DNA of 41,748 nucleotides from the IMG/VR virus record IMGVR_UViG_3300035703_000175, positions 1 through 41,748 of that record. One strand, written 5' to 3'. A program made the translations under genes and the position numbers. Every line of letters begins with the position of its first letter. Within the stretch, counting starts at the first letter, position 1. Of the stretch, positions 36,953-40,647 are shown in pieces. This DNA is from a virus. The notes below the pieces were generated by a model. That model worked only from the letters and a program-made list of their open reading frames with translations, searched no databases and was not told the DNA's origin.

Positions 36953-37111
36953 ATGATAACTGACGAACTCTATCTAAATCTTCGAGAGTTTTACCGCGAC
37001 AAGGGCGCAAAAGCCTTGAAGGATAACAATATTAGCGAGGCAGATTATTGCTCAGGTGTTGTCCGGGGCTTAGATATAGCCTTCCAAGACGGAACGGCGA
37101 AAAGAATCTAA
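36953..37111 (+). CDS. Early small protein (52 aa)
   Basis: First gene of the plus-strand cluster, directly after the leader copy and about 34 bases downstream of the predicted start. Helical, charged (ELYLNLREFYRDKGAKALKDN...), with one cysteine. No family recognised; by position an immediate-early protein, typically a host-takeover factor. Confidence 0.7.
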   Translation: MITDELYLNLREFYRDKGAKALKDNNISEADYCSGVVRGLDIAFQDGTAKRI

Positions 37112-37117
37112 GGCGAA

Positions 37118-37158
37118 ACGCCCCGCAAGGGGCGTCTAGGGGCAACGGCCTACCCCTA
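37118..37158 (+). other. Tandem hairpins after the first early gene
   Basis: Hairpin 1 (37118-37135): ACGCCCC/GGGGCGT closing a GCAA tetraloop (GNRA type). Hairpin 2 (37137-37158): TAGGGG/CCCCTA with a 10-base loop. Neither is followed by a U-run, so they are not terminators. The same first hairpin recurs almost exactly at 37398-37415. Confidence 0.72.
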
Positions 37159-37180
37159 CTGAAGAGCCAGGCCACTAACT

Positions 37181-37190
37181 GAAAGGGTAA
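37181..37190 (+). promoter_or_regulatory. Early leader copy 2 (GAAAGGGTAA)
   Basis: Exact copy, three bases before the ATG at 37194; the segment GAAAGGGTAAAAAATG is identical to copies 1 and 3. Confidence 0.88.
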
Positions 37191-37193
37191 AAA

Positions 37194-37391
37194 ATGAAAA
37201 TCGAACTCAATGACTTCGTAGCCGGGAAAGTTCCTGCCGTAACTTCGGTGATTCTTCTCAAGGAGACCGCGTGGATAGATTTTTCAGACAAGAGCAGAAT
37301 CTATCTCACGATTGAACAACTCAAGGGAATCGTAGAGCACTACGAGCGAGCACTAGACCGCGAGCAACTTCTCGCCAAACTAGGCAACTAG
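37194..37391 (+). CDS. Early hypothetical protein (65 aa)
   Basis: Small alpha/beta protein: strands (ELNDFVAG, VPAVTSVILLKETAWIDF) followed by a helix (TIEQLKGIVEHYERALDREQLLAKL). No known family. Transcribed with its neighbours from the 36884 promoter. Confidence 0.7.
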   Translation: MKIELNDFVAGKVPAVTSVILLKETAWIDFSDKSRIYLTIEQLKGIVEHYERALDREQLLAKLGN

Positions 37392-37397
37392 GCCGAA

Positions 37398-37449
37398 ACG
37401 CCCCGCAGGGGGCGTCTACCCGTAGGGCGGGTACTGACGAGGCCGTCAG
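37398..37449 (+). other. Three consecutive hairpins after the second early gene
   Basis: 37398-37415: ACGCCCC/GGGGCGT with a GCAG loop. 37417-37433: TACCCG/CGGGTA. 37434-37449: CTGACG/CGTCAG with an AGGC loop. The three stems are stacked head to tail and end six bases before the leader copy at 37455. No U-runs. Confidence 0.75.
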
Positions 37450-37454
37450 ATAGA

Positions 37455-37464
37455 GAAAGGGTAA
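37455..37464 (+). promoter_or_regulatory. Early leader copy 3 (GAAAGGGTAA)
   Basis: Exact copy, three bases before the ATG at 37468, directly after the hairpin array. Confidence 0.88.
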
Positions 37465-37467
37465 AAA

Positions 37468-37776
37468 ATGAGTCAGAACAAGGTACGCGACGTAATCGTC
37501 GGCGAGATACAACACAACGGCGACCGATTCGCGGAAGAGATGAGAGAGTTATTTGACTACCTCGACACTCTCGACCTATCACGAGAGGAGAAGAACACCA
37601 TCTCCTCCTACGCAAATAAGATGTTCTACTTCGGCGAGCGACGTGGACTCCAGAAGGGCGTGGAGAGTGTGAACAATATCCTCTCCGCCGTCTATACCTC
37701 CTGCCGGAGTTCTCAGGAGTATCACTACTGGCAATACAACGGCGAGAGAGTGCTAGAGCAGGGCATCACGGCCTAG
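37468..37776 (+). CDS. Early hypothetical protein (102 aa)
   Basis: Helical and charged (VRDVIVGEIQHNGDRFAEEMRELFDYLDTL..., NTISSYANKMFYFGERRGLQKGVESVNNIL). No motif recognised; the longest of the first three early proteins. Ends in the hairpin region 37773-37828. Confidence 0.7.
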   Translation: MSQNKVRDVIVGEIQHNGDRFAEEMRELFDYLDTLDLSREEKNTISSYANKMFYFGERRGLQKGVESVNNILSAVYTSCRSSQEYHYWQYNGERVLEQGITA

Positions 37777-37828
37777 CGGTTGCCTATCCTTGCCCTGCGA
37801 TAGCAGGGCAGGGGTAGGGGGCAACTAG
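37773..37828 (+). other. Nested hairpin after the third early gene
   Basis: A perfect inner stem TGCCCTGC/GCAGGGCA (37791-37798 and 37803-37810) with a GATA loop, inside an outer stem of TTGCC/GGCAA and CTAG/CTAG arms. No U-run. Third of the four structured spacers. Confidence 0.7.
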
Positions 37829-37840
37829 TCCCACGAGAGA

Positions 37841-37849
37841 AAAGGGTAA
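37841..37849 (+). promoter_or_regulatory. Early leader copy 4 (AAAGGGTAA)
   Basis: One base different at the 5' side (AAAAGGGTAA), three bases before the GTG at 37853. Confidence 0.8.
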
Positions 37850-37852
37850 AGC

Positions 37853-37996
37853 GTGAACATCAAACTGAAAGAGGAAGAGTACGAACTTATTCTATCGGCG
37901 CTACGTTGCGACAGGGTGGGGACGTGGGGAGATGGGCGAGAAGAGGCCATCCAAAAACTAATGAAGAAACTAAAGAGAGAGAGGGCTAACGCGTGA
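37853..37996 (+). CDS. Early small hypothetical protein (47 aa)
   Basis: GTG start after leader copy 4; helical, charged, with one cysteine (LSALRCDRVGTWGDGREEAIQKLMKKLK). Overlaps the next GTG by four bases (GTGA). Unknown. Confidence 0.62.
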   Translation: MNIKLKEEEYELILSALRCDRVGTWGDGREEAIQKLMKKLKRERANA

Positions 37997-38166: not shown

Positions 38167-38351
38167 AGGTTTCAGACCTAGCAGTACGAATCGGACAAGT
38201 CGGATATTTACGAACTGAGGCCTTTCGGGTACCGGTGAGGATACTCGAGGGGAAGATGTCCTACGGAGAGCCTCGCTACCTCGTCACCCCGGAAGGGGGA
38301 GAGGGGCAGGCGTGGGTCAATGCGACACGGCTAAACTTTCCTAACGCGTAG
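38163..38351 (+). CDS. Early hypothetical protein (62 aa), beta-rich
   Basis: GTG start overlapping the previous stop (GTGA). Strand-rich (VSDLAVRIGQVGYLRTEAFRVPVRILEGKMSYGEPRYLVTP...), possibly a small SH3-like barrel. No motif. Followed by the hairpin spacer and leader copy 5. Confidence 0.64.
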   Translation: MKVSDLAVRIGQVGYLRTEAFRVPVRILEGKMSYGEPRYLVTPEGGEGQAWVNATRLNFPNA

Positions 38352-38358
38352 TGCTTGA

Positions 38359-38417
38359 CTATCGGAGAGGGGCGAGAGTACCCTCTCCGGTAGCCGGATA
38401 CTAGGCGACCGACCTAG
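38359..38417 (+). other. Two hairpins in the 38351-38437 spacer
   Basis: 38359-38393: 13-base stem CTATCGGAGAGGG/CCCTCTCCGGTAG (one T-G wobble) with a 9-base loop. 38401-38417: CTAGG/CCTAG. The second ends five bases before leader copy 5. No U-run. Confidence 0.74.
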
Positions 38418-38422
38418 AACGG

Positions 38423-38432
38423 GAAAGGGTAA
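38423..38432 (+). promoter_or_regulatory. Early leader copy 5 (GAAAGGGTAA)
   Basis: Exact copy of the ten-base leader, four bases before the ATG at 38437. Last copy on this strand. Confidence 0.85.
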
Positions 38433-38436
38433 AGAA

Positions 38437-38580
38437 ATGAAATGTAAAGAATGTGTAGTAGAGATAAGTAAGTTAGAGGAGTTTCCTGGCGGTATCTGCG
38501 TTAATTGCTACGCAAAAACACCGGAGGCTAACCGCCCTATAACCGCCCGCGAATTGGCGCAAATGTGGGGAGGGAAATAA
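38437..38580 (+). CDS. Early zinc-ribbon protein (47 aa)
   Basis: Two C-x2-C pairs, C3-KE-C6 and C21-VN-C24 (ICVNCYAK), form a clean zinc ribbon; the rest is helical (ANRPITARELAQMW). ATG directly after leader copy 5. Probably binds nucleic acid or a host polymerase subunit; inferred. Confidence 0.7.
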   Translation: MKCKECVVEISKLEEFPGGICVNCYAKTPEANRPITARELAQMWGGK

Positions 38581-39854: not shown

Positions 39855-39934
39855 GAGAGGTAGTTATCTGTGCGCTCGTTGCGATAGCAATAGCGTGGTT
39901 AATAATGGTGATAGAGGAGAAGATTAACAGGTGA
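39851..39934 (+). CDS. Very small membrane peptide (27 aa)
   Basis: ATGA coupling at its start and GTGA coupling to the transglycosylase at 39931. One hydrophobic helix (VVICALVAIAIAWLIMVI) with charged ends. Too short to analyse, but tightly coupled; a signal-anchor-type partner of the next protein is possible. Confidence 0.5.
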   Translation: MREVVICALVAIAIAWLIMVIEEKINR

Positions 39935-40377
39935 ACCATAAGCGTAGGCTAGTGCTGGCTACCTTACTGGTGCTGGTACTAGCCTTATTCATTCTTCCCC
40001 ACGCGCAAGAGTGGGAGAGGGCGAAGTTCGTCCCTCCTAAATCAACACCAGTAATACAAGCAAAGCACGACACAATGAAGGAGAAGAAGGCAAATGCGAA
40101 GATGGCTAAGGCGTATGCGAACGCAGCGTTTGGCTGGAAGGGTGAGCAGTGGAAATGTTTACGAACCCTTTGGACCAATGAGAGCAGGTTTGATAGTAAG
40201 GCGAACAACCCTTACAGTAGTGCCTTTGGTATCGCACAGTTACTTAAAGAGAAAAGCACTGACCCCGCTATCCAAATCCTTAAAGGATTGCGATACATCA
40301 AACATCGTTATTCAAGTCCCTGCCGAGCGTTGGCAAAGTGGAAGAGGGAGAAGGCGAGAGGTAATCCCTGGTACTAG
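39931..40377 (+). CDS. Membrane-anchored lytic transglycosylase (SLT-type)
   Basis: 148 residues. N-terminal signal anchor (about 5-23, LVLATLLVLVLALFILP). The SLT-like catalytic segment is LWTNESRFDSKANNPYSSAFGIAQL at about 80-104 with the catalytic glutamate E84, followed by a helix and SPCRALAKWKR. Such enzymes cleave the glycan strand of peptidoglycan. Its place at the end of the early operon, not the lysis cassette, and its anchor suggest a role during infection or wall remodelling rather than lysis. GTG start in a GTGA overlap. Confidence 0.85.
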   Translation: MNHKRRLVLATLLVLVLALFILPHAQEWERAKFVPPKSTPVIQAKHDTMKEKKANAKMAKAYANAAFGWKGEQWKCLRTLWTNESRFDSKANNPYSSAFGIAQLLKEKSTDPAIQILKGLRYIKHRYSSPCRALAKWKREKARGNPWY

Positions 40378-40381
40378 ATTG

Positions 40382-40390
40382 TGATACAAT
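40382..40390 (+). promoter_or_regulatory. Extended -10 promoter for the predicted small RNA
   Basis: TGATACAAT fits the extended -10 form (TG-n-TATAAT, one mismatch). No good -35 is present, which extended -10 promoters tolerate. Predicted start at or near 40397, the first base of the RNA's first stem. Confidence 0.58.
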
Positions 40391-40396
40391 AAACTT

Positions 40397-40474
40397 GTAG
40401 CGTCGAGCGTATTCTTACCCTTTCCGCTCCGCTACATCTAAGCCCCGTCTACCCTTTCGGACGGGGCTTTCTAA
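40397..40474 (+). ncRNA. Predicted small antisense RNA with two UACCCUUUC loops
   Basis: From the predicted start to the terminator, about 75 bases, the RNA folds into two hairpins. Hairpin 1 (40397-40435): GUAGCG/CGCUAC then GAGCG/CGCUC, 11 bp in all with a 2-base bulge, loop UAUUCUUACCCUUUC. Hairpin 2 is the terminator (10-bp stem), loop UACCCUUUCG. Both loops carry UACCCUUUC, the exact reverse complement of GAAAGGGUA in the early leaders. It could pair with and cover the ribosome-binding region of five early mRNAs. No ORF in it. Confidence 0.7.
40440..40474 (+). terminator. Terminator of the early operon (and of the predicted small RNA)
   Basis: AAGCCCCGTC/GACGGGGCTT, 10-bp stem with a 10-base loop, then TTTCTAATT on the plus strand. 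On the minus strand the trailing T content is weak, so it mainly stops plus transcription; the converging minus operon ends at the FmdB gene whose stop is at 40471. Confidence 0.88.
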
Positions 40475-40647
40475 TTGTCAGTAGAATAAAAGCCAGTACC
40501 CTTGAACTGAATAGAAGGCGCCGACCACACGCGGGTCATCTGTACACCGCAGAAGTTACACGCAGGGTTCGGTCTATCTTCATCAACACCGCGCTCTATC
40601 TCTAGGTAGTTAGCGCAGAACTCACATCTATAAGGATAGAGGGGCAT
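40471..40647 (-). CDS. FmdB-family zinc-ribbon protein (58 aa)
   Basis: MPLYPYRCEFC...NPACNFCGVQM: two C-x2-C pairs at 8/11 and 30/33, then the family ending (FKGTGFYSTDN), where GFY-x-TD is characteristic of FmdB-like zinc ribbons. Such proteins are annotated as putative regulatory proteins; the true function is unclear. ATG at 40647, AAGG at a suitable distance. Last gene of the minus-strand early operon, overlapping its upstream neighbour by 20 bases. Confidence 0.85.
   Translation of the reverse strand: MPLYPYRCEFCANYLEIERGVDEDRPNPACNFCGVQMTRVWSAPSIQFKGTGFYSTDN

What the first reader, a model, noticed from the sequence alone, without database searches (positions are those of the whole stretch)
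40382..40474. A phage small RNA whose two loops are exact complements of five early-gene leaders
An extended -10 (TGATACAAT, 40382-40390) is followed by a compact two-hairpin RNA ending in the operon terminator. Both loops show UACCCUUUC. The leaders of five early cistrons (36940, 37181, 37455, 37841, 38423) carry GAAAGGGUA or nearly so, 3-4 bases before the start codon, so pairing would block ribosome entry at all five. In Gram-positive bacteria, sRNAs with C-rich loops that pair with Shine-Dalgarno sequences are established (for example RsaE-type). A phage RNA with two identical anti-leader loops matched to a set of its own genes would be new to my knowledge. It could act as an early shut-off: made last in the operon, accumulating as early mRNA is read to the end. 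An alternative is a decoy for a host RNA-binding protein.
Basis: partly seen in the sequence, partly recalled or inferred. Interest (0 to 1): 0.88.

Follow-up and report, generated by a model that had tools for sequence, protein, structure and literature searches.

The report
Phage RNA paired to early-gene leaders
This phage of an actinobacterium carries a tiny gene for an RNA whose exposed loop is complementary to the ribosome-binding sites of a set of its own early genes, and across many related phages loop and binding sites have changed together, which is strong evidence (not yet an experiment) that the RNA pairs with those messages, most likely to turn them off.

Summary
TACCCTTTC occurs in both loops of a compact two-hairpin RNA (40397-40474, + strand). 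Its exact complement sits 4-5 nt before the start codon of four cistrons of the single rightward operon; a fifth has it with one mismatch. None of 56 leftward genes has it.

The decisive test was comparative. Related uncultivated actinophages carry an analogous hairpin at the same place, with lineage-specific loops, and in most lineages the leaders match: CTCTCTTTC/GAAAGAGAG, CTTATCCTTTC/GAAAGGATAAG, TAGCCCCTT/AAGGGGCTA, CTACCTTTC/GAAAGGTAG. One loop was recorded before its leaders were seen: CTTGTCCTTTC, with four leaders GAAAGGACAA. Shuffling loops among genomes destroys the match (p = 2e-5 for 11 loop classes). Several lineages show no match.

Promoter-like DNA precedes the stem in most lineages, so a free trans-acting RNA is likely. 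The second identical loop is clade-specific. Repression of early translation is inferred, not shown. It works like alpha-r14/NfeR1, LhrC and P1 C4 RNAs but matches no Rfam family. Two type II hammerhead ribozymes lie in the same leaders.

The parts
40382..40390 (+). extended -10 promoter element TGATACAAT of the small RNA
   Evidence: sequence; -10-like hexamer before the stem in most relatives; the window's own full promoter score is modest (shuffle p = 0.08)
40397..40435 (+). hairpin 1 of the small RNA; 15-nt loop 40410-40424 displays UUACCCUUUC
   Evidence: fold; conserved with this loop in L045, L046, L055, L070, L073, L098, L105, L107
40440..40474 (+). hairpin 2 and terminator; loop about 40450-40458 displays UACCCUUUC
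   Evidence: loop kept in the near clade, changed in L105 and L107
36940..36948 (+). target leader GAAAGGGTA, 4 nt before ATG 36953
37181..37189 (+). target leader GAAAGGGTA, 4 nt before ATG 37194
37455..37463 (+). target leader GAAAGGGTA, 4 nt before ATG 37468
37840..37848 (+). target leader AAAAGGGTA (one mismatch), 4 nt before GTG 37853
38423..38431 (+). target leader GAAAGGGTA, 5 nt before ATG 38437
36953..37111 (+). target cistron, 52 aa, no Pfam family
37194..37391 (+). target cistron, 65 aa, no Pfam family
37468..37776 (+). target cistron, 102 aa, no Pfam family
37853..37996 (+). target cistron, 47 aa, GTG start
38437..38580 (+). target cistron, 47 aa, no Pfam family
39931..40377 (+). 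transglycosylase-like last gene of the operon, the anchor used to find the RNA in relatives
   Evidence: PHROG 12661 transglycosylase E = 1.7e-16
37111..37176 (+). type II hammerhead ribozyme directly upstream of leader 37181 (slightly below Rfam gathering score)
   Evidence: 35.8 bits against a gathering score of 37
37391..37451 (+). type II hammerhead ribozyme directly upstream of leader 37455
   Evidence: 43.5 bits

Best explanation
The feature is a phage-encoded, trans-acting anti-Shine-Dalgarno small RNA. It is probably transcribed as a free RNA of about 75 nt from its own promoter at the end of the rightward (early) operon, and probably also as the 3' end of that operon's mRNA. The open loop UUACCCUUUC of hairpin 1 (and, in this clade, a second copy in the terminator loop) pairs with GAAAGGGUA(A), which covers the Shine-Dalgarno sequence of five separately led cistrons. 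This blocks ribosome entry and lowers early-protein synthesis as the RNA builds up. Leftward genes use GAAAGG or other purine-rich Shine-Dalgarno sequences without the GUAA extension and escape. Shown by sequence: the loops, the leaders, their restriction to one operon, the co-variation of loop and leader across lineages, and promoter-like DNA before the stem. Inferred: that the RNA is made, that it pairs in the cell, that pairing represses, and the timing.
For: Loops and leaders in place. 5 of 15 rightward leaders but 0 of 56 leftward leaders pair over 8 or more nt. Loop and leader co-vary in related phages: 25-lineage permutation z = 5 to 8, p = 5e-5; 11 loop classes p = 2e-5, and repeated leader 8-mers fall in the own loop 31 times against 4.3 for foreign loops. 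L238, with loop CTTGTCCTTTC noted before its leaders were seen, has four leaders GAAAGGACAA. Promoter-like DNA before the stem, mean score 7.9 against 3.1 for shuffles. With accessibility, the nine best sites for loop 1 are all on the rightward operon.
Against: No expression data. Some lineages (L148, L154, L159, L183) have the hairpin but no leader matching over 8 nt; L118 and L165 fit weakly. Leader 37840 is predicted to pair better through another site, and two rightward genes without the exact motif (39853, 39467) score as well as the named five. The window's own promoter has a poor -35. Gene starts were called by a simple rule, loops were curated, and loop classes are not fully independent.
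Confidence: 0.72

Rival explanations
1. The same RNA works mainly as an immunity or incompatibility device. A resident phage's loop silences the early leaders of a super-infecting phage that bears the same leader 'address', as P1/P7 C4 RNA does in heteroimmunity. Selection for new addresses would explain why loop and leaders change together so often.
For: Rapid paired change of loop and leaders; C4 RNA precedent.
Against: No integrase was seen among the proteins scanned and no related prophage in the bacterial genome collection, so a resident state is not evident; it could still act between co-infecting phages.
Confidence: 0.12
2. The loop is a general mimic of the 16S rRNA tail (CCUCCUUUCU) that sequesters or blocks many host messages and helps host shut-off; the match to its own leaders is a side effect of shared Shine-Dalgarno complementarity.
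For: All loops contain CUUUC- or CCUUC-like words that resemble the anti-Shine-Dalgarno sequence.
Against: The match extends beyond the Shine-Dalgarno core and follows the lineage. Permutation among loops that are all anti-Shine-Dalgarno-like still gives p = 2e-5, and leftward leaders with GAAAGG lack the extension.
Confidence: 0.08
3. GAAAGGGTA/TACCCTTTC is a double-stranded DNA site for a phage regulator; the loop position is incidental.
For: A DNA site would also appear as a reverse complement and could co-vary with its protein.
Against: Orientation is fixed: the purine strand in leaders 4-5 nt from the start codon, the pyrimidine strand in RNA loops. Stem sequences differ completely between lineages while the hairpin persists.
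Confidence: 0.04
4. The hairpins act only in cis at the 3' end of the operon mRNA (long-range pairing with leaders, message stability or terminator function), not as a free RNA.
For: The hairpins sit at the end of the same operon, and the second one is its terminator.
Against: Promoter-like DNA directly before the stem in most lineages; ribozymes and long hairpins between cistrons would separate leaders from the 3' end.
Confidence: 0.1

Closest known systems
alpha-r14 / NfeR1 ('cuckoo') small RNAs of alpha-proteobacteria (PMC10746234)
   Same: Several hairpins each display one identical anti-Shine-Dalgarno motif in an unpaired region; stems differ while the motif is kept; translation is blocked at the initiation region of many mRNAs.
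   Different: There the motif is ultraconserved (CCUCCUCCC) and targets are host genes; here the loop changes by lineage together with a set of the phage's own leaders, and the pairing reaches beyond the Shine-Dalgarno core.
LhrC family of Listeria monocytogenes (PMC4132741)
   Same: CU-rich motifs repeated in loop A and in the terminator loop, pairing with the Shine-Dalgarno region of mRNAs.
   Different: Cellular RNA with a UCCC motif and host targets; no sequence or Rfam match here.
C4 RNA of phages P1 and P7 (described in PMC12197685)
   Same: Phage RNA with complementary sequences probably in loops that block the ribosome-binding region of the phage's own ant mRNA.
   Different: One target in a temperate phage and part of an immunity system; here a set of five or more cistrons sharing one repeated leader, in apparently lytic actinophages.
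Start-associated sequences (SAS) of cluster K mycobacteriophages (PMC3203893)
   Same: One identical leader around the Shine-Dalgarno sequence of 11-19 non-structural genes. In the K1 phages examined, a reverse-orientation SAS lies in the loop of a conserved intergenic hairpin.
   Different: In Amgine, Tierra and Amohnition the homologous loop is changed while the SAS stays the same, so the loop/leader rule is not upheld there; the role of SAS is unknown.

Membership tests
Any described RNA family in Rfam 15 | Match at or above a family's gathering score within 40382-40480 | tested here: not met
   No match there at gathering score nor at E up to 5
C4 antisense RNA (P1/P7) | Homology to the C4 family | tested here: not met
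   No Rfam match
C4 antisense RNA (P1/P7) | Loop complementary to a phage mRNA ribosome-binding region | tested here: met
alpha-r14 / NfeR1 (cuckoo) | Three hairpins, each with CCUCCUCCC in an unpaired region | tested here: not met
   Two hairpins with UACCCUUUC
LhrC | UCCC motif in loop A, linker and terminator loop; Listeria family in Rfam | tested here: not met
   Motif is ACCCUUUC, none in the linker, no Rfam match
Trans-acting anti-Shine-Dalgarno sRNA (functional kind) | Open loop complementary to the Shine-Dalgarno region of several mRNAs | tested here: met
   co-variation
Trans-acting anti-Shine-Dalgarno sRNA (functional kind) | Independent transcript | tested here: inconclusive
   Promoter-like DNA before the stem in most lineages; no RNA data
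Trans-acting anti-Shine-Dalgarno sRNA (functional kind) | Repression lost and restored by compensatory mutants | not testable with these tools
   Needs a reporter experiment
Cluster K SAS system as the same mechanism | Intergenic hairpin loop complementary to the repeated leader, kept when the leader is kept | tested here: inconclusive
   Met in K1 phages with compensatory stem changes; not met in Amgine, Tierra and Amohnition
Type II hammerhead ribozyme (RF02276), neighbouring feature | Rfam gathering score | tested here: met
   37391-37451, 43.5 bits against 37; the copy at 37111-37176 scores 35.8, just below

The most novel reading that the evidence does not exclude
A widespread family of actinophage RNAs forms a private translation address code. 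Each phage lineage marks a set of early genes with its own extended Shine-Dalgarno sequence and carries one small RNA whose loop reads that address to switch the set off. Leaders and loop co-evolve, which gives timing and possibly phage-phage incompatibility.
Probability: 0.55. Interest if true: 0.88.

Novelty: new variant of a known kind. Interest (0 to 1): 0.82.

Why it matters
Phage RNAs that pair with a ribosome-binding site are known for single targets (C4), and multi-target anti-Shine-Dalgarno RNAs are known from bacteria. A phage RNA that addresses a whole set of its own early genes through one repeated leader, with loop and leader co-varying over about a dozen classes, was not found in the papers searched (an open-access library only). 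It offers a simple way to time early shut-off in lytic phages of actinobacteria, suggests a testable idea for repeated start-site motifs of unknown role such as the SAS of cluster K, and provides naturally orthogonal loop/leader pairs.

Tried and rejected
Nucleotide search of named phages gave nothing, so relatives came from IMG/VR. Of 99 contig stretches with two TACCCTTTC copies, only L045, L046, L055, L070, L073 and L098 are true relatives; the rest are chance or repeats. An exact-stem search for two hairpins with identical loops in distant relatives failed, partly because hairpin 1 has an inner stem of only 5 pairs and partly because the second loop is not conserved. Cluster K SAS was pursued as the same system and is left as a lead: the K1 phages fit, Amgine, Tierra and Amohnition do not, and ZoeJ's only near-exact reverse copy is the leader of a leftward gene. 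A search for related prophages in bacterial genomes found none. A general anti-Shine-Dalgarno mimic as the sole explanation and a DNA-binding-protein site were set aside on permutation and orientation grounds.

Full report
1. What is there. The window is an IMG/VR virus record of 41,748 bases. Relatives run across its ends, so it is circularly permuted. Nearly all genes lie leftward: terminase, head, tail, primase, helicase and a sigma-like factor. One rightward operon, 36.9-40.5 kb, encodes small proteins; those I searched have no Pfam family, and the last gene encodes a transglycosylase-like protein. Calling this operon 'early' is an inference from its layout. Just after that gene come an extended -10 (40382-40390) and 78 nt that fold as two hairpins (z = -7.0), each with TACCCTTTC in its loop. 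Exact GAAAGGGTA precedes four cistrons of the operon and a one-mismatch copy a fifth, 4-5 nt before the start codon. TACCCTTTC occurs 7 times on both strands against 0.27 expected. Of 15 rightward leaders, 5 pair over at least 9 nt with the loop; of 56 leftward leaders none reaches 8. Leftward genes often use GAAAGG but lack the following GTAA.

2. Near relatives. L045, L046, L055, L070, L073 and L098 keep both hairpins almost unchanged, while several flanking stretches differ. In L105 and L107 (sigma-like protein 83-86% identical) hairpin 1 and its loop are kept but the terminator loop is CTCTCTG. So loop 1 is the conserved element, and the double loop is a clade feature.

3. Distant relatives and co-variation. 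Searches anchored on the transglycosylase and the sigma-like protein gave more than 100 loci. Most carry a hairpin with a pyrimidine-rich loop at the same place, usually directly before a terminator. Loops were picked by that rule without using the leaders. Examples of loop and own leaders: L121 TTATCTCTCTTTC with GAAAGAGAG in several leaders; L153, L169 and L239 TTCCTTATCCTTTC with GAAAGGATAAG(GAA), up to 14 nt; L176 TTTATCCTTTC with GAAAGGATAAA, 12 nt; L173 CTACCTTTC with GAAAGGTAG; L151 TAGCCCCTT with AGGGGCTA in four leaders; L139 CTACCCCTT with AAGGGGTA. The loop of L113 (TTACTTGTCCTTTCA) was written in the notebook. When a longer piece of the same contig, L238, was examined later, four leaders read GAAAGGACAAG or GAAAGGACAAA just before ATG. 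L238 is in synteny with the window (sigma-like protein 55% identical), so loop and leaders have both changed between two comparable phages.

4. Statistics. With 25 lineages, the number of own leaders with 8 or more paired nt averages 2.32, against 0.59 for foreign leaders. Permutation z is 7.7, and 6.4, 7.4 and 5.1 in size for the other three measures, p = 5e-5, the floor of the test. Collapsing related lineages into 11 loop classes leaves p = 2e-5. Starting from leaders instead, repeated leader 8-mers fall in the own loop 31 times, against 4.3 on average for other loops. Limits: gene starts come from a simple rule, loops were curated, and classes are not fully independent. L148, L154, L159 and L183 do not fit; L118 and L165 fit weakly.

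5. Transcription. Among 36 loci scored, the best -10-like hexamer lies 3-9 nt before the stem in 30 and 10-15 nt before it in six. The mean promoter score is 7.9, against 3.1 for shuffled upstream DNA. The best are TTGACA-17-TAGAAT (L181, L187) and TTGACA-17-TAGAGT (L185); the window's own is an extended -10 with a poor -35, shuffle p = 0.08. A free RNA beginning at the stem is therefore likely but unproven.

6. Mechanism. Pairing would cover the Shine-Dalgarno sequence, so occlusion of ribosome entry is the simplest result, as established for LhrC and NfeR1 (PMC4132741, PMC10746234). Duplex energy with accessibility puts rightward-operon genes in the first nine places for loop 1. Four of the five named leaders are in the first six; the gene with the leader at 37840 is ninth, through another site; loop 2 is weaker because its short loop must open. 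Two rightward genes without the exact motif (starts 39853 and 39467) also score well, so the target set may be wider than five. Timing and early shut-off are inference.

7. Known relatives in function. Rfam has no match at the RNA. The design recalls alpha-r14, LhrC and C4 RNAs. Cluster K mycobacteriophages have a repeated 13-nt leader, the SAS, whose role is unknown (PMC3203893, PMC11373665). In Anaya and other K1 phages the one reverse-orientation SAS lies in a hairpin loop, GCGCGG[CCTCCTATCC]CCGCGC, with compensatory stem changes among K1 phages. In Amgine, Tierra and Amohnition the SAS is unchanged but the loop is not complementary to it. That remains a lead, not a result.

8. Neighbourhood. 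Two type II hammerhead ribozymes end directly upstream of leaders 37181 and 37455, and relatives have them too. Long hairpins with internal loops precede leaders 37840 and 38423. The target cistrons therefore look like separately led, possibly processed units, which fits leaders that are addressed individually.

9. Verdict. Pairing between loop and leaders is strongly supported by co-variation. Repression, timing and the transcript itself remain to be shown.

Noticed in passing
window 37391-37451 and 37111-37176; L045, L105, L107, L158: Type II hammerhead ribozymes sit between rightward cistrons, ending a few bases before the GAAAGGGTA leaders. Cleavage would give each cistron its own 5' end.
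   Followed up: partly
window about 37773-37828 and 38348-38406; also L045, L098, L105, L107: Long intercistronic hairpins (16-20 pairs, some with a symmetric internal loop) precede the other target leaders and resemble RNase III processing sites; they match no Rfam family at gathering score.
   Followed up: no
L207:39682-40068 (phage Anaya) and 141 cluster K mycobacteriophage records: A conserved intergenic RNA with a hairpin whose loop is complementary to the SAS leader in K1 phages, but not in Amgine, Tierra or Amohnition.
   Followed up: partly
L121, L118, L124, L150 and others, just after the anti-leader hairpin: The terminator hairpin in one group has a conserved loop TCAAGAGTGCTAA that is not explained by termination alone.
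   Followed up: no
L120, L127, L128, L131, L132, L138: An extra gene whose start resembles a DNA cytosine methyltransferase (read from sequence, not searched) follows the transglycosylase gene; in L120, L128 and L131/L176 the hairpin is still found about 1.3 kb further on.
   Followed up: no
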